A stretch of 64,000 nucleotides of DNA from Terriglobales bacterium (GTDB taxonomy: Bacteria > Acidobacteriota > Terriglobia > Terriglobales > Acidobacteriaceae): the NCBI GenBank assembly GCA_025462725.1, contig JAOAPE010000012.1:545942-609941 (forward strand). The letters are read 5' to 3'. Under the pieces are notes generated by a model. That model saw nothing but the letters and a program-made list of their open reading frames with translations, searched no databases and had not been told where the DNA came from. Below, piece after piece: positions 45,048 through 53,785 of this stretch (its first letter is position 1; every line of letters begins with the position of its first letter). The translations under genes and the position numbers were made by a program.

Positions 45048-45076
45048 TTGACTAGAATATTGCAATTAGCGATACT
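45048..45076 (+). promoter_or_regulatory. Predicted promoter of the XRE-nfeD-flotillin-pspA operon
   Basis: The -35 TTGACT (45048-45053) is followed by 17 bases and the -10 GATACT (45071-45076). Transcription would start near 45083, some 18 bases before the ATG at 45101. The -10 lies inside the inverted repeat at 45069-45084. Confidence 0.7.
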
Positions 45077-45084
45077 GATATCGC
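45069..45084. promoter_or_regulatory. Inverted repeat operator overlapping the -10
   Basis: GCGATA (45069-45074) and TATCGC (45079-45084) form a perfect dyad around CTGA, covering the predicted -10. A related half site TTAGCGA occurs at 44996-45002 and again at 45066-45072 where it enters the dyad. This is the expected place for the XRE protein encoded next to bind and repress its own operon; that is inference. Confidence 0.6.
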
Positions 45085-45100
45085 AATTTGTGATAAGTAC

Positions 45101-45619
45101 ATGCGTTTAGGCGAAAAGCTCAAGTATCTCCGGGAAGTGGAAGGCAGTCTGCGCGGATTTGACCGCGCAATGACGCAGCAGGAGATGACTCGCGCGATCA
45201 AAAAGGAGCTGGGCAAGACCATAAGCCAGTCTTATCTTTCGCAGATTGAAAGCGGCGTACGGCCACACCTGACAAACACCACGCGTATGTTGCTGGCAAA
45301 GTTTTTCAAGGTGCATCCCGGATATCTAGTGGACGACCCGGTTGGGTACAGCACCGAGTTGATCTCGGATGCGCAGACGCTCGAAGACAAGTTTGATTTG
45401 TGGTTGATCGCGGGGGCAGAGAGATTTTCCCGTGATCCTGAAATCTGCCACGCGCTGCTGGAAATTGCGCGGCACGAGGATTCACGGAAGTGCATTGTGC
45501 TATTGGGTGCGATTTTGGAAACCCCCAATATGGTGGATCGGTTGTTGCAGGTTTTGAAACCGGGTGCGCGCGGTGGCGAGAAGAGTTCGTCGTCAGCCGC
45601 TGGAAGTGAGCGAATATGA
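45101..45619 (+). CDS. XRE-family HTH repressor of the membrane-stress operon
   Basis: This 172-residue regulator has an N-terminal XRE/Cro-type HTH (about 5-75). The domain is longer than usual: MRLGEKLKYLREVEGSLRGF and MTQQEMTRAIKKEL are followed by SQSYLSQIESGVRPHLTNTT, the recognition part. The C-terminal half (about 80-150) is helical (LEDKFDLWLIAGAERFSRDP), probably for dimerisation or signal sensing, with a Ser/Gly-rich tail. The start is ATG at 45101, 17 bases past a perfect inverted repeat. Its last codon overlaps nfeD as ATGA, which couples it to the membrane genes downstream and implies autoregulation. Confidence 0.85.
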   Translation: MRLGEKLKYLREVEGSLRGFDRAMTQQEMTRAIKKELGKTISQSYLSQIESGVRPHLTNTTRMLLAKFFKVHPGYLVDDPVGYSTELISDAQTLEDKFDLWLIAGAERFSRDPEICHALLEIARHEDSRKCIVLLGAILETPNMVDRLLQVLKPGARGGEKSSSSAAGSERI

Positions 45620-46248
45620 CATTGGAAAACTTCTATCTGATCTGTTTTGGTGTTGGCCTGGTGTTCACGGTGGGTTCATTCCTCGCCGGCGGTCTCCATT
45701 TTCATCTGCCGACGAAGTTCCATTTCAACCTCGGACATCACGGCCATGTTCCGCACGCACATGCAGGATCTGGAGTTCATGCGGACACCGGTTCGGGAAT
45801 GGATTTCGCCCACGTATCGCCCTTTAATGTCCCAAGCATGATGGCCTTCCTCGCGTGGTTCGGAGGAGTCGGCTACCTGATGTCTCACAACTTCGGCGCG
45901 GGACTGGCGCTGAGCATAGTTGTGTCACTGGCGGGTGGAGTAGTCGGCGGCGGGATCGTGTTCGTGTTTCTTGCGAAACTGGCGTCGTTCGAAGGCAGTA
46001 TTGATCCGGCAGACGACGAGATGGTTGGCGTGATCGCAACATTGGACTGTGCGATACGCAGCGGCGGTACAGGAGAAATCATTTATATGCAGCGGGGAGT
46101 GCGACACGCTTGCGGGGCGCGCACCGAAAGTGGCGCGACTATGCCGAAAGGCGCAGAGGTTGTTGTCACACGTTTTGAACACGGCATTGCGTATGTGCGG
46201 CTCTGGGAAGAATTCGCTGAGTCTGGGAGCAGTGTCGCCAAGGTGTAG
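45616..46248 (+). CDS. NfeD-like membrane protein with His-rich loop
   Basis: The 210-residue protein has an N-terminal membrane helix (about 5-27), then a loop (about 27-68) containing ten histidines (HFHLPTKFHFNLGHHGHVPH and more), then two to three further helices (about 72-125) and a C-terminal OB-like domain (about 135-205, with EIIYMQRGVRHACGART). This fits short NfeD proteins, which partner flotillins in membrane microdomains. The His cluster could bind Zn, Ni or Cu and is not a usual NfeD feature. It is translationally coupled to the XRE gene, and the flotillin gene follows after 50 bases. Confidence 0.75.
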   Translation: MTLENFYLICFGVGLVFTVGSFLAGGLHFHLPTKFHFNLGHHGHVPHAHAGSGVHADTGSGMDFAHVSPFNVPSMMAFLAWFGGVGYLMSHNFGAGLALSIVVSLAGGVVGGGIVFVFLAKLASFEGSIDPADDEMVGVIATLDCAIRSGGTGEIIYMQRGVRHACGARTESGATMPKGAEVVVTRFEHGIAYVRLWEEFAESGSSVAKV

Positions 46249-46298
46249 CAAAGCGCGGAGTATCGCGCCAAGAGTTTAGGAGTTCCTGAGGAGGAAGT

Positions 46299-47747
46299 AT
46301 GAATTTGAGTGCGCCAATAATCATCGGTTCAATCGTGGCGGTGATCTTCTTTGCATTCTTTGTGATCACGTCTTGGTACAAGAAGGCTGGTCCTAACGAG
46401 GCATTGATCGTGTATGGATTTCGGGGCCCCCGGATAGTGATCGGAAGAGGCACCATCATTTGGCCTGTCGTTGAAAGCTCGAAGTTGCTTTCGCTGGAGC
46501 TGATGTCGTTTGATGTGGCCCCGCAGCAAGACCTCTACACCAATCAAGGTGTAGCGGTCACGGTAGAGGCTGTCGCGCAGATCAAGGTCAAATCAGACAG
46601 TACTTCGATCAACACCGCAGCAGAGCAATTTCTAACCAAGTTGCCCCAACAGCGCGAAAGCTTGATCCGCCTGGTGATGGAAGGTCACTTGCGCGGCATC
46701 ATCGGACAACTCACTGTCGAACAGATCGTGAAGGAACCCGAAATGGTCGGCGACCGGATGCGCACCACATGCGCGGGCGACATGAACAAGATGGGCCTCA
46801 CTGTCATCTCGTTCACCATCAAGGAAGTTCGCGACAAGAATGAGTACATCTCAAACATGGGACGTCCCGACGTTGCGCGCATCAAGCGCGATGCGGATGT
46901 AGCGACTGCGGAAGCAGATCGCGATACGGCGATCCGCCGCGCGCAGGCAATGCGCGAAGCAGCTATCGCAAAAGCGAATGCCGATCAAGAACGAGTTCTT
47001 GCAGAGACGCTGTCTTTGGCGAAGCAGGCCGAAGCGCAACGCGACTTGGAGATCAAGCAGGCCACGTATCAAGAGACTGTGAAGAAGCAGCAGGCGCAAG
47101 CTGACAAGGCCTACGAAATACAGAGCAATATCCAGCAGCAGGCAGTCGTTGCTGAAGCGGTGAAGGTGCAGCAGATCGAGAAAGAGCAACAGATCAAGGT
47201 GCAGGAAGCAGAAATCCTGCGTCATGAAAAAGAACTCATCGCGACTGTCCTCAAGGGCGCGGAGATCGAACGTCAGCGTATTCAGGAATTGGCGAGTGCG
47301 GAACGTCAGCGCCAGATATCAGAAGCTGAGGGACGTGCATCGGCGATCCGCGCGCAGGGCGAAGCTGAAGCCGAGATCATCTTCAAGAAAGGTGAAGCGG
47401 AAGCCAAGGCCATGAACATCAAGGCTGAAGCCTATCAGGAGTACAACCAGGCAGCAGTCGTGGATAAGTTGATCACCAACATGCCGGAGATGGTACGCGC
47501 GATGTCAGCACCGCTTTCTCAAATCGACAAGATCACGATCGTTTCTACAGGCGATGGTCACGCGGCTGGCGCAAACAAGATTACTGGCGACATGGCGGTG
47601 ATGGCGGCACAAATTCCCGCGCTGTTCGAAGCATTGTCGGGGATGAAGATGTCTGAACTCATGTCGAGCATCAAGCAGATGCGCACTACGCCGAAGCTTG
47701 ATGGCGGCAGTGGTGGTGACAGTAAGACCGCGGGCGCAGGCAAGTAA
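46299..47747 (+). CDS. Flotillin (SPFH/band 7) membrane scaffold
   Basis: Flotillins scaffold ordered membrane domains. The 482 residues have one N-terminal membrane segment (about 8-26), an SPFH domain (about 30-200, with NEALIVYGFRGPRIVIGRGT), then a long coiled coil of Ala/Glu/Gln/Lys repeats (about 205-390) including repeated AEA motifs such as QGEAEAEIIFKKGEAEAKAM. A Gly/Ser-rich tail follows. The GAGGAGG ribosome binding site at 46286-46292 is the strongest in the operon. It resembles YuaG/FloT. NfeD upstream and PspA downstream both support a membrane-organisation role. Confidence 0.93.
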   Translation: MNLSAPIIIGSIVAVIFFAFFVITSWYKKAGPNEALIVYGFRGPRIVIGRGTIIWPVVESSKLLSLELMSFDVAPQQDLYTNQGVAVTVEAVAQIKVKSDSTSINTAAEQFLTKLPQQRESLIRLVMEGHLRGIIGQLTVEQIVKEPEMVGDRMRTTCAGDMNKMGLTVISFTIKEVRDKNEYISNMGRPDVARIKRDADVATAEADRDTAIRRAQAMREAAIAKANADQERVLAETLSLAKQAEAQRDLEIKQATYQETVKKQQAQADKAYEIQSNIQQQAVVAEAVKVQQIEKEQQIKVQEAEILRHEKELIATVLKGAEIERQRIQELASAERQRQISEAEGRASAIRAQGEAEAEIIFKKGEAEAKAMNIKAEAYQEYNQAAVVDKLITNMPEMVRAMSAPLSQIDKITIVSTGDGHAAGANKITGDMAVMAAQIPALFEALSGMKMSELMSSIKQMRTTPKLDGGSGGDSKTAGAGK

Positions 47748-47755
47748 GTGGTATC

Positions 47756-47788
47756 CGCCAGCCTTTGGCTTCGCGCCGAGGGCTGGCG
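47756..47788 (+). other. Intercistronic hairpin between flotillin and glycine-zipper genes
   Basis: CGCCAGCC (47756-47763) pairs with GGCTGGCG (47781-47788). Inside, GGC and GCC around TTCGC extend the structure. No T-run follows, so it may set mRNA stability or processing rather than termination. Confidence 0.55.
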
Positions 47789-47808
47789 AATCAAGAATGG
47801 AGAAAGCA

Positions 47809-47988
47809 ATGAAGGGGAAGTCAGAGAAGTTTGCACAGGGAATGGCAATGGGAGTGGCGATAGGAACGGCGATGGGTGTGGCCTTGCATTCGATCGCGAT
47901 TGGCGTCGCGCTTGGAGCGGGTCTGGGAGTGGTGCTGGGAACGCAAAGCGACAAAGCTGAGCAGCAGAAAATCATGAATAAATGTTAA
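47809..47988 (+). CDS. Glycine-zipper membrane miniprotein
   Basis: The 59-residue peptide starts MKGKSEKFAQGMAMGVAIGT and continues with Gly/Ala-rich helices (GVALHSIAIGVALGAGLGVV), a glycine-zipper pattern that packs helices in membranes. The C-terminus is polar (SDKAEQQKIMNKC). I chose ATG at 47809 because GGAGA is seven bases upstream; ATG at 47797 in the same frame is an alternative. It lies between flotillin and pspA. Such small proteins may assist membrane insertion or oligomerisation of the larger partner. No homologue is named with confidence. Confidence 0.7.
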   Translation: MKGKSEKFAQGMAMGVAIGTAMGVALHSIAIGVALGAGLGVVLGTQSDKAEQQKIMNKC

Positions 47989-48030
47989 CGGTCGCAACAA
48001 GACCGAAAAAGAAATGAAGGGAGTACGACA

Positions 48031-48699
48031 ATGGCATTACTTGAGCGTGTAGCAACTTTGGTTCGAGCTAATTTGAACGACCTGATCGATAAGGCTGAAG
48101 ATCCGGAAAAGGTGATCAAGCAGATCATTCTTGATATGGAGAACCAGCTTCTCCAGGTTAAGACGCAAGTGGCCATTGCCATTGCGGACCAGCATCTGCT
48201 TGAGAAGAAGCAGAAAGAGAATGAAGAGAAAGTCACTGAATGGCAGCGCAAGGCGGAGCTGGCGGTCGGCAAGAAACAAGACGACCTCGCTCGCGGCGCG
48301 CTGGAGCGGTCCATCAGCTACAAGCAGATGACGGAGAGCTTCACGCAGCAAGTGGCCGACCAGAAGACGCAGGTGGACAATCTGAAGTCCGCTCTCCACA
48401 AGCTGGAACAGAAACTTGCGGAAGCGCAGAACCGTTGCGATCTGCTCATTGCACAGCAGCGTCGCGCGCGTGTTGTGGGCAAAGCCACTGATGCACATAT
48501 GAAGATGACTGACGGATCGGCGTCGGCTGGCTTCGACCGCATGAAGAACAAGATTCAGCGTAACGATGCCATCAGTTTGGCGAAGGCAGAGGTTGTCGGC
48601 ACCGACACGCTTGATGACAAGTTCGAGCGGCTGGAAAAAGAGGATGAGATCGAGCGATTGTTGTTGGAGATAAAGAGCCGGCACGCGTTAAACGCATAA
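48031..48699 (+). CDS. pspA: PspA/IM30 family membrane-stress protein
   Basis: PspA binds damaged inner membrane and oligomerises to keep it sealed. The 222 residues are nearly all helical coiled coil. The start MALLERVATLVRANLNDLID followed by KAEDPEKVIKQII is the family N-terminus, with the amphipathic membrane-binding helix 1; long helices 2 and 3 follow (about 25-140), then a helical C-terminal part ending in DEIERLLLEIKSRHALNA. GGGAG precedes ATG at 48031. No PspF, PspB or PspC is present; the XRE protein at the head of the operon takes the regulator's place. Confidence 0.93.
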   Translation: MALLERVATLVRANLNDLIDKAEDPEKVIKQIILDMENQLLQVKTQVAIAIADQHLLEKKQKENEEKVTEWQRKAELAVGKKQDDLARGALERSISYKQMTESFTQQVADQKTQVDNLKSALHKLEQKLAEAQNRCDLLIAQQRRARVVGKATDAHMKMTDGSASAGFDRMKNKIQRNDAISLAKAEVVGTDTLDDKFERLEKEDEIERLLLEIKSRHALNA

Positions 48700-48726
48700 C
48701 TGGATAACTGGAGAGGCGTAACACAG

Positions 48727-49053
48727 ATGGCAAACACTTGTGCAACAGAGCCCGCTGGAAACGCGGCAGCAAAGAGCAACGGACAGCTTGTCGCGTTTCC
48801 TGCATCCTACAAAGCGGGCCGGAAACGCCGCTCGGACCTGCGAGCGCAATTCGAGCGGCTGCTCATATTCGTACTTTGCGCTTTGTGGGGATTGGGTATT
48901 GCGTTGTGGGCGTTGGCAGCAGTGTCGAATTGGACATCAGGACACACAGTGACAAGCGCCAGTACGGAGCTACAGATGATGGTGGACTCTCCGATTAACA
49001 CAGGAGTGCATCTGCCAGTAGTGTTAGTAAAGGCATTAGTGGGATGGGACTAG
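48727..49053 (+). CDS. Small single-pass membrane protein of unknown function
   Basis: I do not recognise this 108-residue protein. It has a polar, Lys/Arg-containing N-terminal half, one hydrophobic helix (about 46-66, IFVLCALWGLGIALWALAAV) and a short outer part of about 40 residues. It lies 27 bases behind pspA, and its stop overlaps the next gene by ten bases, so it belongs to the same operon. A role in tethering or sensing at the membrane is possible; PspB/PspC motifs are not seen. Confidence 0.65.
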   Translation: MANTCATEPAGNAAAKSNGQLVAFPASYKAGRKRRSDLRAQFERLLIFVLCALWGLGIALWALAAVSNWTSGHTVTSASTELQMMVDSPINTGVHLPVVLVKALVGWD

Positions 49054-49865
49054 GAACGGATCGCCGGCTCAGGAAGACTGCAATCCTGCTGGTGATTATT
49101 TGCCTTGTTCTGGCAGCACACGCGCAGGGCGATGCGGATTTCCATCCGGATATTGAGGGCAAATTGTTTGACTCCCTGAATCAGGAGCGTGCGAAGGCTG
49201 GCTTGCCGGCGCTGATGTGGAACGAAAAGCTGGTGCAATCGGCGCGCACACACGCTGAACGGATGGCGGCGGTGCACATGCTCAGCCATCGAGTGGCCGG
49301 GGAACAGGTTCTGACAGAGCGCGTTGCGGCAACGTCGCTGCGATTCAATGCTGTGGCTGAAAATGTTGCGTACGCTACTGATCCGGATGACATCCACCCT
49401 GGATGGATGCATTCCGCGGGACATCGCAAGAACATACTCAGCCAGGATTACAACTCCGTTGGCGTTGGCGTGCTCAAGGTGAGCAAGATCTTTTATGCTG
49501 TCCAAAATTTCGCCCACGTCACGAGCGAGGACACCGTCGCCAAAGCAGAAAAGCGGCTAGGCGCAGCCTTCAATCGGATTCGAAAACAAAAGAACACTGC
49601 GCCGGTAAGAATGGTATCCACGGCAGCATTGCATGATGCGGCATGTAGGTTTGCGCGGGCGGACAAATTAGTGGCATCCGAGGTGCCGCACTCCGATGGT
49701 CAGCATTTCACCATTGCCTTTACGGCAGCCGAGCCAGAAGAACTGCCGCCAGATCTGGTGCAACTTGCGGGTGATCCCAATGTGAAGAACTTGTACGTGG
49801 GCAGTTGTTACATGACGAGTTCGCAGTATCTAGGCGGAACATACTGGTTCGCCGTCGTTTACTGA
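49044..49865 (+). CDS. Secreted CAP/SCP-domain protein
   Basis: The 273-residue protein has a signal peptide (about 10-29, AILLVIICLVLAAHAQ) and a CAP (SCP/PR-1) domain over about 35-165. The domain words are LNQERAKAGLPALMWNEKLV, ARTHAERMAAVHMLSH, VAENVAY and GWMHSAGHRKNILS, which carry the conserved His and Glu residues. The C-terminal 105 residues have no clear match and contain two cysteines. Bacterial CAP proteins are found in spore coats and envelopes; their activity is poorly known. It overlaps the previous gene by ten bases. Confidence 0.85.
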   Translation: MGLGTDRRLRKTAILLVIICLVLAAHAQGDADFHPDIEGKLFDSLNQERAKAGLPALMWNEKLVQSARTHAERMAAVHMLSHRVAGEQVLTERVAATSLRFNAVAENVAYATDPDDIHPGWMHSAGHRKNILSQDYNSVGVGVLKVSKIFYAVQNFAHVTSEDTVAKAEKRLGAAFNRIRKQKNTAPVRMVSTAALHDAACRFARADKLVASEVPHSDGQHFTIAFTAAEPEELPPDLVQLAGDPNVKNLYVGSCYMTSSQYLGGTYWFAVVY

Positions 49866-49866
49866 A

Positions 49867-50766
49867 ATGGATTCTTCGTCGAATATTTTTGTCGGAACTG
49901 CAGGATGGTCTTACAAGGACTGGCAGGGAATCGTCTATCCGGAGAAGACGAAGCCTGATCAGCATCCGATTGAATTTCTCGCGCGCTACTTCGACATGGT
50001 CGAGATCAACACTTCGTTCTACGGGCACATTAAGCCGGAATGGGGCAAGCTGTGGAGCAAGAAGGCAACACAGGTAAATCCACGATTCATGTTCACAGCG
50101 AAACTGAATCGCGCGTTTACGCATTCGCCTATTGCGGTGATTGAGTCCACAAGTTCCGCAACGCTGCATCCGAATTCTGAAGACGAGTCGCTAGCCAAAG
50201 CTGGACTGGATTCCCTGATGGAAGAGAATCGCCTGGGTGCGCTGTTGATCCAATTTCCGGTGTCGTTCAAAAATACAAACGACAATCGGGATTACCTGAA
50301 TGGAGTACTCGAGAAGTTCCGAGCTTATCCGCGAGTTGTAGAAGTGCGACATTCAAGTTGGAACAATGAAGGCATTCTGCGCTACTTCGGAGAAAAGGGA
50401 ATCGCGTTCTGCAACATCGATCAACCGGCATTGGGGAAATCGCTCAGAGCGACTGAGCATGTGACTTCGGGGATCGGCTATGTCCGGCTGCATGGACGCA
50501 ATTACGAACAGTGGTTCCAGACTGACAATCGCGATGACCGTTACAACTACCTATATGCTGAAAAAGAGTTGCAGGGATGGAAGCAAAAGATTGCAACTAT
50601 ATCGGAAAAGGCAGAGAAGACCTTTGTGGTGGCAAACAATCATTTCCGCGGACAGGCTGCCGTAAACGCCTTACAGCTCAAGAGCATGCTGAACGGGGAT
50701 GAGAAGGTCCCGATCCCGGAAACACTCGCCAAAACCTATCCCGTGCTGGAAACAATTGCTGCATAA
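49867..50766 (+). CDS. DUF72 family TIM-barrel protein
   Basis: The 299-residue protein is a complete DUF72 member: IFVGTAGWSYKDWQGIVYPE at the start, YFDMVEINTSFYGHIKPEWG near 40-60, FPVSFKNT, and RLHGRNYEQWF near 215 with the late FVVANNHFRGQAAVNA. The fold is a TIM barrel related to endonuclease IV, and the biochemical role is not settled. The start lies two bases after the CAP gene stop, so it is the last gene of the operon. It may be a passenger rather than part of the membrane system. Confidence 0.88.
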   Translation: MDSSSNIFVGTAGWSYKDWQGIVYPEKTKPDQHPIEFLARYFDMVEINTSFYGHIKPEWGKLWSKKATQVNPRFMFTAKLNRAFTHSPIAVIESTSSATLHPNSEDESLAKAGLDSLMEENRLGALLIQFPVSFKNTNDNRDYLNGVLEKFRAYPRVVEVRHSSWNNEGILRYFGEKGIAFCNIDQPALGKSLRATEHVTSGIGYVRLHGRNYEQWFQTDNRDDRYNYLYAEKELQGWKQKIATISEKAEKTFVVANNHFRGQAAVNALQLKSMLNGDEKVPIPETLAKTYPVLETIAA

Positions 50767-50890: not shown

Positions 50891-51031
50891 ATGAAAACTC
50901 TTATAGATAACATGATGGATGCGAAGTACAACGAGTATCTGGACAACGCCGCTTTGCGTATGGGCCTCACCACAGTCGTGTTTTCAGTGTGGTTGGCGGC
51001 AGGCTTTGCGTTGCTGAAGTTTGCTCTGTAA
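50891..51031 (+). CDS. 46-residue single-pass membrane microprotein
   Basis: This is an open frame of 46 residues behind an ideal AAGGAG ribosome binding site at 50875-50880. It starts MKTLIDNMMDAKYNEYLDNA and ends in one hydrophobic helix (TVVFSVWLAAGFALLKFAL). I recognise no family. The good ribosome binding site, balanced composition and the free-standing position in a 327-bp gap support a real gene. A TTGACC at 50851-50856 might be a -35, but no matching -10 is clear. The rest of the gap shows nothing else on the plus strand. Confidence 0.6.
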   Translation: MKTLIDNMMDAKYNEYLDNAALRMGLTTVVFSVWLAAGFALLKFAL

Positions 51032-51093: not shown

Positions 51094-52347
51094 TCAAGCC
51101 TTCACGGCGACTTCCTGATCTTGCTTCCTGTGGGCTACGTAGTGTGAGTCCACATACTCATCCAGAATCTTGATGAACTCCGGGACAATGTTGTCCCCCT
51201 TCAGAGTTGTGAAGAGGCGTCCGTCTACGTAAACGGGAGCCTTGGGTTCTTCGAAAGTTCCGGGAAGTGAGATCCCGATGTTTGCGTGTTTAGATTCGCC
51301 GGGGCCATTTACTACGCAACCCATTACTGCCAGCTTCATTTCCTCAACGCCGGTATAGGTCTCTTTCCAGATCGGCATCTGTTTGCGCGTGTAACTCTGG
51401 ATCTTTTCCGCCATCTCCTGGAAGAAGGTACTGGTGGTACGTCCACATCCGGGACATGCAGTGACTTGTGGTGTGAAACTTCGTATCCCGAGAGATTGCA
51501 AAATCTGTTGCGCCACGATGACTTCTTCCGTGCGGTCACCATTCGGTGCGGGAGTGAGTGAAACCCGAATCGTGTCGCCGATACCTTCCTGCAGAGCCAA
51601 TGCGAGCGCGGCGGAACTTGCAACAATTCCTTTAGCACCCATGCCGGCTTCGGTGAGTCCAAGGTGCAAGACGTAGTCGCAGCGCTTCGCGAGTTCGCGA
51701 TAAACGTCAATCAAATCCTGCACGCCGCTGACTTTTCCGCTCAGGATGATCTGGTCTTTGCGCAGGCCGTATTTCTCCGCGAGTTCAGCAGAGTCCAATG
51801 CGCTTACGACCATCGCTTCCATCATCACGTCGCGGGCTTCTTTGGGCTCCGCTAGACAGCTGTTCTCGTCCATCATCTTCGTCAAGAGTTGCTGGTCGAG
51901 CGATCCCCAATTCACGCCTATACGCACGGGCCGTTGGTTCTCGACCGCTACTTCGATCATCGTGCGGAAATTCTCGTCGTCTTTTTTGCCAATACTGCAG
52001 TTGCCCGGATTGATGCGGTACTTCGCGAGAGCTTTCGCGCAGGCAGGATACTTCTTCAGCAGCAAGTGGCCGTTGTAGTGGAAGTCACCGATGATGGGTG
52101 TCCTTATCCCCATCTTCGCGAGTGCTTCCACAATGTGTGGGACTGCCTGGGCGGCAGCGTCATTGTTGACGGTCACTCGAACCAACTCTGACCCTGCTCT
52201 CGCCAATGCCGCTACTTGCTTGATAGTTCCCGGAATGTCCGCCGTGTCAGTGTTGGTCATCGACTGCACCACAATAGGTGCAGCGCTTCCGACGAGGACA
52301 TCTCCGATACGCACTGTTGGCGTTTTTCTGCGAGTAATCAAGGCCAT
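51094..52347 (-). CDS. ispG: IspG (GcpE), HMBPP synthase
   Basis: IspG is the [4Fe-4S] enzyme that converts methylerythritol cyclodiphosphate to HMBPP in the MEP isoprenoid pathway. The 417 residues are of the short, single-barrel bacterial type. Diagnostic parts are [20 protein letters not shown] near 30, [10 protein letters not shown] near 88, the cluster cysteines in [15 protein letters not shown] near 295 and [10 protein letters not shown] near 342. It heads away from the small protein and lies just downstream of rseP, separated from it by a terminator. Confidence 0.96.
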
Positions 52348-52400
52348 GTGAAGTATCTAAATTTTAACATGCAGAGCAGGCTAGCCTCGCTGCCGCAAAC

Positions 52401-52429
52401 AAAAACACCCGGAGCCGGTCCGGGTGTTT
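52401..52429 (-). terminator. Rho-independent terminator of the rseP operon
   Basis: AACACCCGG (52404-52412) pairs with CCGGGTGTT (52420-52428) around seven bases. On the minus strand it is followed by TTTGTTTG. It separates rseP from ispG. Confidence 0.9.
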
Positions 52430-52450
52430 AGAAGTGATCGAATAGTGCTT

Positions 52451-53785
52451 TTAGGGCAGGATCTTAGAGAAAAGCGCGGTCTTAGCAACGTCGTTATACA
52501 CCACCACCATCGCGAACAGCACCAGGAAGACAAACGCCGTTTGGTAAATGCGTTCTTTGATGCGCTGGTCTATGTCGCGTCGAATCACGCTTTCCACCAA
52601 GGTCAGCAGGATGAGCCCGCCGTCGAGGATCGGGATAGGCAGCAGATTAAAGATACCCAGGTTCAAGCTGATAGCTGACATGATCAGCATCAGCGGAGCC
52701 CAGCCTTCTTCCCGGGCCGCTTCGCCGGTCGCTTGCGCGATTCCTACTGGCCCCTGCAATTGCTTGATCGAGACTTTACGCTCAGCCATTTTTTGTACTA
52801 GTTCGACGATCAAAAAGGCAAACTTCTTGTTCTGATCGAAAGAACGGGTCAGCGCTTGAGCGAACGGCAGCTTTAACTTGATAGAAGGATTCGAGGCAAA
52901 GCCCAAGCGGAAGCGCTTCGTTCCCGAGGTCTCCGAGATGACTGGCGTAACAGTTGTCTTGAACTCAGTCGCATTCCGGGCGACGGTGACTTCAACAGGC
53001 GCGCCATTCTTCTGGGCCAAGAATTCTTGGATTGGGGGGATCGAATCGAAATGCTTTCCATCCAGCGCCTTGATCTCGTCCCCGATGCGAACGCCCGCTT
53101 TATACAGCGGCATGTCTGTTTCAATCGCGGTGACTTTGATCGGCTGCTGCGCCCACAACCCAGTGGTTCCTATTTCATTCGGGCCAGAGGCTTCAGGCTT
53201 GAGTGAGAGCGAAAGTGTCTGATTTTCGCGCGCAACCGCCAAGCTCACGGGCTCACGGGTGCTTAACATCGTTTGCAGTGCGACGTCTTCCCATGTGGGA
53301 TTCTGCACATTACCGATACGCACGATCAAATCACCGGGCTGAACCCCTGCTTTGGCCGCAGGACTGTCTTTGTCCACGGAACTAACTTTGGCTGGCTTGT
53401 CTGCCCAGTAAGCTTGCTCGTAATTGACCATGAAGACAGCCGTGAGTAGACCCACAGCGAGGATGACGTTCATGGCCGGACCGGCGAGCGCAATTAGAAT
53501 GCGTTGCCAGCGCGGATGAGAGGCGAACTCACCGGGGTCGCCGGTGCGCTGCTCCATCGGGTTTTCACCCGCCATCTTCACGTATCCGCCGAACGGCAGA
53601 GCGCTCAGGCGGTAGTCTGTCTCGCCCATGCGGAACCCAAACAGCCGTTTCCCAAAGCCGACAGAAAAAACCTCGACGCGAACACCAAATAATTTTGCAA
53701 CGAGATGGTGTCCCAACTCGTGGATCACGATCATGATCCCGAGAACGACAGCCATGGAAACTACGGCGATGAGTACGTTCATCAT
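52451..53785 (-). CDS. rseP: RseP-type site-2 protease (M50)
   Basis: RseP cuts membrane-bound anti-sigma factors and signal peptides inside the inner membrane. The 444 residues have the zinc motif HELGHH (His, Glu, His) in the first helix near 23-28, two PDZ domains (about 125-200 and 205-285, with SPAAKAGVQPGDLIVRIGNV and YKAGVRIGDEIKALDGKHF) and the third ligand in NLLPIPILDGG near 382. It lies 60 bases after dxr in the usual uppS-cdsA-dxr-rseP order. Confidence 0.95.
   Translation of the reverse strand: MMNVLIAVVSMAVVLGIMIVIHELGHHLVAKLFGVRVEVFSVGFGKRLFGFRMGETDYRLSALPFGGYVKMAGENPMEQRTGDPGEFASHPRWQRILIALAGPAMNVILAVGLLTAVFMVNYEQAYWADKPAKVSSVDKDSPAAKAGVQPGDLIVRIGNVQNPTWEDVALQTMLSTREPVSLAVARENQTLSLSLKPEASGPNEIGTTGLWAQQPIKVTAIETDMPLYKAGVRIGDEIKALDGKHFDSIPPIQEFLAQKNGAPVEVTVARNATEFKTTVTPVISETSGTKRFRLGFASNPSIKLKLPFAQALTRSFDQNKKFAFLIVELVQKMAERKVSIKQLQGPVGIAQATGEAAREEGWAPLMLIMSAISLNLGIFNLLPIPILDGGLILLTLVESVIRRDIDQRIKERIYQTAFVFLVLFAMVVVYNDVAKTALFSKILP

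What the first reader, a model, noticed from the sequence alone, without database searches (positions are those of the whole stretch)
45048..50766. Membrane-stress operon: XRE, His-rich NfeD, flotillin, glycine-zipper, PspA, TM protein, CAP, DUF72
Eight co-directional genes with overlaps or short gaps combine flotillin/NfeD microdomain parts with PspA but have no PspF, PspB, PspC or sigma-54 signals. Instead an XRE repressor leads, with a dyad over the promoter -10. The added parts (glycine-zipper miniprotein, small TM protein, secreted CAP protein) suggest a distinct envelope-stress module. Family identities are from motifs; the joint function is inference.
Basis: partly seen in the sequence, partly recalled or inferred. 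Interest (0 to 1): 0.78.

Follow-up and report, generated by a model that had tools for sequence, protein, structure and literature searches.

The report
Self-regulated bacterial membrane-repair operon
Many soil acidobacteria carry one operon that couples a flotillin pair to the membrane-repair protein PspA, and its first gene appears to switch the whole operon off by binding two near-identical DNA sites over its own promoter; the gene partnership was already described, the switch is the new part.

Summary
The eight genes and promoter dyad are real. The conserved unit is four genes, XRE–NfeD–SPFH/flotillin–PspA. In 97 non-redundant relatives, all found through XRE (window excluded), NfeD follows in 96, SPFH in 92 and PspA in 82; every miss is a contig end. 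The glycine-zipper protein (10 of 97), TM protein (3), CAP (8) and DUF72 (3) are lineage-specific and do not define a module. The pair lies over the −10 and start in 94 of 97 promoters and is absent upstream of NfeD, SPFH and PspA. In 61 genomes, strong hits occur only in the 23 carrying this XRE, at the operon start. Best reading: an EspR-like XRE protein autorepresses one PspA–flotillin membrane-protection operon; the inducing signal is unknown. The core neighbourhood (HTH, NfeD, band-7/FloT, PspA in Acidobacteriota) was published in 2022 (PMC9239133). New here, within the papers searched: the operator architecture, an apparent one-target regulon, a His-rich NfeD loop, and an EspR-type regulator. 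A well-supported new variant of a known kind; repression and inducer are untested.

The parts
45048..45076 (+). sigma-70-like promoter TTGACT-17-GATACT
   Evidence: an exact TTGAC starts 4-11 bases before operator I in 74 of 94 promoters; 63 of 94 also score a -35 of at least 5/6 with a 16-18 spacer to an xAxxxT -10
45058..45074 (.). operator I, 17-bp palindrome TATTGCAATTAGCGATA over spacer and -10
45079..45095 (.). operator II, 17-bp palindrome TATCGCAATTTGTGATA over the presumed transcript start and leader; 21 bp from operator I
45101..45619 (+). XRE-family regulator with helical C-terminal part, EspR-like
   Evidence: HTH_3 8.3e-6; profile vs EspR 5.5e-7; Foldseek top hits EspR, best E only 4.1e-3
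45616..46248 (+). NfeD-type partner: TM1, His-rich loop (about residues 27-68), TM2-TM3, OB-fold
   Evidence: membrane placement of the helices is inference
46299..47747 (+). SPFH/flotillin (Band_7 + Flot)
47797..47988 (+). glycine-zipper miniprotein, 63 aa (accessory; found in 10 of 97 relatives)
   Evidence: sub-threshold Gly-zipper hits
48031..48699 (+). PspA/IM30 (ESCRT-III-like), the only PspA found in the genome
48727..49053 (+). small protein with one hydrophobic segment (by eye); found only in the same genus
   Evidence: coding supported by 30 silent vs 14 amino-acid-changing codons between L033 and L034, against 25% silent among random changes; no Pfam hit
49044..49865 (+). CAP-domain protein, N-terminal export signal by eye (accessory; 8 of 97 relatives)
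49867..50766 (+). DUF72 protein (accessory; 3 of 97 relatives)

Best explanation
An autoregulated membrane-protection operon. The XRE protein (EspR-like HTH plus helical C-terminal part, probably dimeric) binds two 17-bp palindromes 21 bp (two helical turns) apart on one face of the DNA, covering the -10 element, the presumed transcript start and the very short leader, and shuts the operon off (site and position shown by conservation; binding, cooperativity and repression inferred). A membrane stress relieves XRE (inferred). NfeD and flotillin are then made together with PspA: the NfeD OB-fold caps a flotillin assembly, which with PspA polymers organises, seals or holds damaged membrane and unfolded membrane proteins (inferred from B. 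subtilis YdjI-PspA and S. aureus FloA-NfeD work). The signal is not known; a plausible route is titration of XRE by a membrane-bound product of its own operon or a change in the His-rich NfeD loop (metal or pH), closing a feedback loop. The genes after PspA are lineage-specific add-ons.
For: Gene order XRE-NfeD-SPFH(-PspA) in every locus with room. In 61 genomes, all 23 XRE genomes have PspA, downstream of XRE except where the contig ends (G027); 3 others have PspA, one below cut-off. In 396 genomes of the phylum, 30 of 30 XRE genomes have PspA, 28 of 30 within 4 kb on the same contig. Tandem operator with at most 8 mismatches in 30 scored positions in 94 of 97 promoters; 485 mononucleotide shuffles never below 10. 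The consensus was read off the window and 22 loci; of the other 74 promoters 73 pass. Spacing 21 in 91 of 95 XRE upstream regions; no pair at any spacing 17-30 in 96, 92 and 82 upstream regions of NfeD, SPFH and PspA. Model R1: 22 of 23 XRE genomes have a hit at E<=1e-3 at the operon start (the 23rd, G038, 0.48, same place); 0 of 38 XRE-lacking genomes reach 1e-3. In L036 and L052 the operator stands upstream of an extra first gene, not directly before XRE, as expected for an operon-level operator. The -10 overlaps the end of operator I. Exact single-site pattern in the own 4.33-Mb genome: only these two sites. NfeD fold. Literature for mechanism: PMC8581546 (abstract and passages: pspA-ydjGHI, floA and floT are all under the stress sigma factor sigma-W), PMC11222466 (passages).
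Against: No expression, binding or phenotype data exist here. Repression is inferred from operator position only; XRE proteins can also activate, and operator I nearly touches the -35. No inducer, protease site or ligand pocket was found. 106 of 136 PspA-bearing genomes of the phylum sample lack this XRE, so PspA function does not depend on it. R1 was built from 30 operators, among them those of 11 of the 23 genomes; 12 were held out. At E<=1, 7 of the 38 XRE-lacking genomes show weak hits (best 0.008, G016), and several XRE genomes show a few weak extra hits (best G011:C13, 0.0024), so further weak targets are not excluded; that search used strict filters and scored at most 110 candidates per genome. 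SPFH is split over two or more matches in L045, L117, L132 and L158, PspA in L096 and L123, XRE in L135 (sequencing errors or real breaks, not resolved).
Confidence: 0.72

Rival explanations
1. XRE is a positive autoregulator: it activates the operon on stress.
For: A Cro/XRE-type HTH protein, ClgR, is encoded with PspA in actinobacteria (PMC11237479 passages); I recall ClgR as an activator there, but a passage of that paper calls it a repressor.
Against: Both sites lie on and downstream of the -10, in most loci up to the start codon, the place of a repressor; the PDB profile search finds EspR only, not ClgR.
Confidence: 0.12
2. A housekeeping flotillin-NfeD-PspA operon: XRE only homeostatically limits its own level and there is no stress induction.
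For: Tandem autorepressor sites with apparently one target promoter also fit simple homeostasis; no inducer domain recognised.
Against: PspA and flotillin operons studied elsewhere are stress-linked (PMC8581546 abstract and passages; PMC11222466 passages). This is by analogy only; nothing here shows induction.
Confidence: 0.13
3. The eight genes are a distinct new envelope-stress module in which the glycine-zipper, TM and CAP proteins are essential parts.
For: Tight packing in the window and the same order in same-genus locus L032; CAP+DUF72 recur after PspA in L039 and further downstream in L046.
Against: 10, 3, 8 and 3 of 97 relatives only (lower bounds for the small proteins).
Confidence: 0.03

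Closest known systems
Acidobacteriota PspA network of PMC9239133 (HTH regulator, NfeD, band 7/FloT, PspA)
   Same: Same phylum and the same four kinds of protein around pspA; 11 of 19 acidobacterial PspA had a band7_Flot neighbour in that paper.
   Different: Its main text has 0 uses of 'operator', 'repressor' or 'palindrom' and 0 of 'XRE', so no operator or regulator type; supplements were not available to me.
B. subtilis pspA-ydjGHI (PspA with SPFH protein YdjI)
   Same: PspA encoded and functionally linked with an SPFH protein (PMC8581546, abstract and passages).
   Different: YdjG/H membrane anchors and sigma-W control; 'XRE' does not occur in its text.
Flotillin + YqiJ/YuaF + CesT/Tir-PspA operons (PMC11237479, section 19)
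   Same: Flotillin, NfeD/YuaF-type 3TM protein and PspA in one operon.
   Different: Those carry a CesT/Tir chaperone and an AAA+ ATPase; here an XRE regulator leads and Pfam shows neither among the eight proteins.
M. tuberculosis clgR-pspA operon
   Same: A Cro/XRE-type HTH protein encoded with PspA (PMC11237479 passages).
   Different: No flotillin or NfeD among the genes listed there; the regulator here matches EspR, not ClgR, in the PDB.
EspR (M. tuberculosis)
   Same: Closest solved sequence and top Foldseek matches; published core TTTGC[TC][GA] and autoregulation (PMC3315491 passages) resemble the TTGC half-site found here.
   Different: EspR is a nucleoid-associated protein with hundreds of sites; this one appears to have one promoter.
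E. coli pspF-pspABCDE
   Same: PspA.
   Different: No PspB in the genome, PspC unlinked, sigma-70-like promoter, XRE leading the operon instead of a divergent PspF.

Membership tests
PspA/IM30 | PF04012 over cut-off, full length | tested here: met
   135 bits vs 33.9, residues 3-217
PspA/IM30 | ESCRT-III-like membrane-remodelling polymer | not testable with these tools
   biochemical
Flotillin / SPFH | Band_7 and Flot domains over cut-off | tested here: met
   102 and 33.8 bits; NCBIfam FloT 329 bits, under its 700 equivalog cut-off, so flotillin-like, not certified FloT
NfeD | C-terminal OB-fold like YuaF | tested here: met
   model strands 140-196; Foldseek 2k14 E 1.2e-5, 3cp0 TMt 0.79, 8z5g 2.9e-4
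NfeD | PF01957 over gathering score | tested here: inconclusive
   window protein 12.5 bits vs 29.1; 17 of 29 homologues match at E<=1, best 3.6e-4
NfeD | gene before an SPFH gene | tested here: met
   all 92 loci with SPFH have an NfeD match between XRE and SPFH; in L117 it is a fragment
EspR | sequence and fold similarity over the HTH region | tested here: met
   profile 5.5e-7; Foldseek only 4e-3
EspR | nucleoid-associated, hundreds of sites | tested here: not met
   strong sites at the operon start only, so not filed as an EspR; weak scattered binding could not be tested
Classical Psp response (PspF/PspABC) | PspB present and PspC linked to PspA | tested here: not met
   no PspB; PspC on another contig
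Classical Psp response (PspF/PspABC) | PspF and sigma-54 promoter | not tested
   none among the eight proteins and the promoter is sigma-70-like; no genome-wide search made

The most novel reading that the evidence does not exclude
A new class of PspA control: an EspR-type XRE repressor with a dedicated one-promoter tandem operator senses membrane or metal/pH state through its own operon products, for example by being titrated by the NfeD His-rich loop, the flotillin scaffold or PspA, giving a PspF-independent membrane-stress switch across many Acidobacteriota.
Probability: 0.3. Interest if true: 0.65.

Novelty: new variant of a known kind. Interest (0 to 1): 0.45.

Why it matters
How PspA is controlled outside the few model phyla is largely open. 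Here a defined 38-bp operator, its presumed regulator and an apparent one-operon regulon are pinned down by conservation in an abundant but poorly studied soil phylum. That makes the question directly testable: bind the operator, delete the regulator, find the inducer. It also puts a flotillin/NfeD pair and PspA under one switch, in line with the functional link shown in B. subtilis.

Tried and rejected
Considered and rejected: the eight genes as one conserved module (accessory genes in 3-10 of 97 loci; the glycine-zipper profile was built from ten seeds, the window's own included, and found, beyond the seed loci, only L032, so 10 is a lower bound). The dyad 45069-45084 as the operator itself: relatives keep two 17-bp palindromes, of which it is the junction. 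The same dyad as a terminator: one search lists it as terminator-like, but it sits at the promoter and such sites are no more frequent than in shuffles. Wider regulon: allowing one mismatch to the single site gives 52 forward and 59 reverse matches against 30 and 28 for the reversed control pattern in the own genome, too noisy to name further targets; G011:C13 at E 0.0024 is the strongest other candidate and was not followed up. A direct link of CAP and DUF72 to PspA: seen in a few loci only. bPH-like accessory genes: one representative each reached Pfam cut-off for bPH_4 (23.1 vs 22.9, marginal) and bPH_5; the leading extra genes of L036 and L052 have no Pfam hit over cut-off but match each other (37%) and the C-terminal part of the DUF1648 protein of L041, so 'PH-like' is an impression. 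A codon comparison of the glycine-zipper ORF between L031 and L032 was uninformative (one silent difference). Dropped rows: five loci (L079-L082, L085) as duplicates of L031-L035 (checked by identical XRE DNA); L153 from the operator count (contig begins 19 bases before the gene); L117 from the His-loop count; three operators above the threshold (L095, L036, L052) counted as misses. The genome contigs list holds the best 80 of 326 confirmed relatives, so distant ones were not seen and conservation is measured on the nearer ones.
Full report
What is in the window. Eight co-directional ORFs lie between 45101 and 50766 with junctions from a 10-base overlap (TM/CAP) to a 50-base gap (NfeD/SPFH); XRE and NfeD overlap by ATGA. 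Pfam confirms HTH_3, Band_7 + Flot, PspA_IM30, CAP and DUF72; three proteins (NfeD-like, glycine-zipper mini, TM) have no hit over a cut-off. NCBIfam gives the flotillin 329 bits to FloT, below the 700-bit equivalog cut-off. The genome has one PspA, six Band_7 genes, no PspB and one PspC on another contig.

Identity of gene 2. Among 29 aligned homologues 17 match Pfam NfeD at E<=1, best 3.6e-4. An AlphaFold2 model from that alignment (mean pLDDT 74.5; block means 92-97 over residues 141-200; under 50 over 28-68) shows three long N-terminal helices and a five-stranded C-terminal domain. Foldseek places it with the NfeD domain of YuaF (2k14, E 1.2e-5) and with E. coli QmcA-YbbJ (8z5g, 2.9e-4). 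So NfeD is right. A distinctive trait is the disordered loop between helices 1 and 2: in 95 of 95 homologues in which the segment could be cut out it holds at least 4 histidines (median 8 in 43 residues; median 1 in the rest of the protein) (L117, with a broken frame, dropped). If the OB domain faces the cytoplasm, as reported for S. aureus NfeD (PMC11222466, passages), three membrane helices would place this loop in the cytoplasm too (inference).

Conservation of the unit. The XRE protein is found in 23 of 61 related genomes, own included, and PspA in 26 of the same 61; all 23 are shared. In all 22 other loci fetched the order is XRE-NfeD-SPFH, then PspA in 21; the 22nd contig ends inside SPFH. 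In an even sample of 396 genomes of the phylum the XRE profile hits 30 and PspA 136 (131 over cut-off); all 30 XRE genomes have PspA, 28 within 4 kb on the same contig, and the two unlinked ones (G272, G327) carry the most divergent XRE. 106 PspA genomes lack this XRE, so the module is one of several ways PspA is arranged in the phylum. A scan of genome contigs confirmed 326 relatives; the 80 best are from records titled as Acidobacteriota groups, save two MAGs titled Proteobacteria/Deltaproteobacteria (L093, L088) that I take to be mislabelled. The same-genus contig G001:C151 has the length and position of JAOAPH010000178.1, titled Candidatus Angelobacter sp.. Over 97 non-redundant loci (22 + 75; duplicates removed and checked; all were found through XRE) NfeD follows in 96, SPFH in 92, PspA in 82, every miss being a contig that ends first. 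Glycine-zipper was found in 10, CAP in 8, TM in 3 (same genus), DUF72 in 3. Profiles for the small proteins are weak, so those counts are lower bounds. In six loci SPFH or PspA is split over two or more matches, as is XRE in L135; L036 instead has what looks like a second, shorter SPFH match before the main one. Other lineages carry other accessories: a cluster typed Pro_CA_2 after PspA in up to 16 loci, one typed bPH_4 in up to 12, a DUF1648 protein inside the operon in 6 (single-linkage clusters; one representative of each tested).

The operator. In the window they are TATTGCAATTAGCGATA (45058-45074) and TATCGCAATTTGTGATA (45079-45095). A pair with at most 8 mismatches in 30 scored positions is present in 94 of 97 promoters examined (window included), against a minimum of 10 in 485 mononucleotide-shuffled sequences. 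The consensus was read off the window and 22 loci (21 of these 23 pass); of the other 74 promoters 73 pass. Scanning spacings 17-30 with a looser core (at most 3 of 20), 91 of 95 XRE upstream regions have the pair at 21 bp, 17 at 28 bp and at most 2 at any other spacing; no such pair occurs at any of these spacings upstream of NfeD (96), SPFH (92) or PspA (82). In both sites C6, G12 and A15 are invariant and A2, T3 and T16 at least 97%. In 54 of 94 the last base of operator II is the A of the regulator's ATG (offset -37), so the leader must be very short there. An exact TTGAC starts 4-11 bases before operator I in 74 of 94; a full promoter with its -10 overlapping or abutting the end of operator I was scored in 63 of 94. 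Two of the three misses, L036 and L052, are informative: there the operator stands before an extra first gene upstream of XRE. The third, L095, keeps only one clear site.

Regulon. The strict single-site pattern has exact matches at only these two sites in 4.33 Mb. A sequence-only model of the pair finds, in 61 genomes, a hit at E<=1e-3 in 22 of the 23 XRE genomes and the 23rd (G038) at E 0.48, all at the operon start; none of the 38 XRE-lacking genomes reaches 1e-3, though 7 have weak hits at E<=1 (best 0.008). Twelve of the 23 operators were not in the model; 11 of these 12 reach 1e-3, though one (G002) is nearly identical to a training sequence. A second strong hit in G002 lies at a contig end beside a 25-residue XRE fragment and is probably an assembly copy. 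The hits at training loci are by construction; the weight lies on the held-out loci and on the absence elsewhere. A few weak extra hits in XRE genomes (best G011:C13, 0.0024) were not followed up.

The regulator. A profile of 23 XRE proteins (70% mean column identity) matches only EspR entries in the PDB at E<=0.1 (best 5.5e-7); the predicted model (pLDDT 83, pTM 0.47) is an HTH domain plus four further helices, and Foldseek ranks EspR first but weakly (4e-3, none under 1e-3). EspR's published core TTTGC[TC][GA] and autoregulation (PMC3315491, passages) resemble the TTGC half-site here, but EspR has hundreds of sites and this protein seems to have one promoter; I do not file it as an EspR.

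Mechanism. Sites on one face of the helix, covering the -10, start and leader, argue for a cooperative autorepressor (inferred). Published work supplies the effector logic: an SPFH protein is needed to bring PspA to the membrane in B. subtilis, where pspA-ydjGHI and both flotillins are under the stress factor sigma-W (PMC8581546, abstract and passages), and FloA-NfeD holds unfolded membrane proteins in S. aureus through the NfeD OB-fold (PMC11222466, passages). I therefore propose a stress-relieved repressor of a combined flotillin/NfeD and PspA membrane-protection kit. The inducer, and whether an operon product titrates XRE, are unknown; the His-rich loop is the best lead for a metal or pH input (speculation).

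Prior art. PMC9239133 (passages and sections 8 and 11 read) reports for Acidobacteriota PspA next to band 7/FloT proteins (11 of 19), NfeD as partner and HTH regulators in the operons; its main text has no 'operator', 'repressor' or 'palindrom'. PMC11237479 (passages and section 19 read) reports flotillin + YuaF/YqiJ + PspA operons with CesT/Tir chaperones; its main text has no 'operator', 'palindrom', 'XRE', 'EspR' or 'Acidobacteri'. A literature search for XRE/flotillin/PspA/Acidobacteri/operator (at least 4 of 5 terms) returned none, and the listings showed no experimental study of this operon; the library holds open-licence papers only.

Verdict. What is added is a precise, testable control element and a corrected boundary of the module.

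Noticed in passing
window 50891-51031 (+): Small ORF with a hydrophobic C-terminal segment (by eye), about 125 bases after DUF72; similar small ORFs follow CAP in L033 (6685-6831) and L034 (4780-4926). No Pfam hit over cut-off.
   Followed up: partly
window 45616-46248, residues ~27-68, and homologues: Histidine-rich, HxH-patterned disordered loop in every NfeD of this operon that could be measured (95 of 95), as in metal-binding proteins.
   Followed up: partly
L036 ~1254-1800, L052 965-1542 (oriented as in the scripts): An extra hydrophobic protein gene, similar in the two loci, has become first gene of the operon and the operator stands before it.
   Followed up: partly
L041, L043, L046, L100, L152 between NfeD and SPFH; L039 between SPFH and PspA: DUF1648-type protein inserted in the operon (only L041's tested); its C-terminal part resembles the leader proteins of L036 and L052.
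   Followed up: partly
downstream of PspA in up to 16 loci (e.g. L086, L088, L090): A Pro_CA_2-type (putative carbonic anhydrase) gene follows PspA in many loci (only L090's tested).
   Followed up: no
G011:C13:32592-32622: Weak second operator-like site (E 0.0024), the strongest hint of another target.
   Followed up: no
window 51094-53785 (-): IspG- and RseP-like genes lie convergent to the operon; ispG-type neighbours appear in L032, L033, L034, L051 and L052. Names from memory, not from a family search.
   Followed up: no
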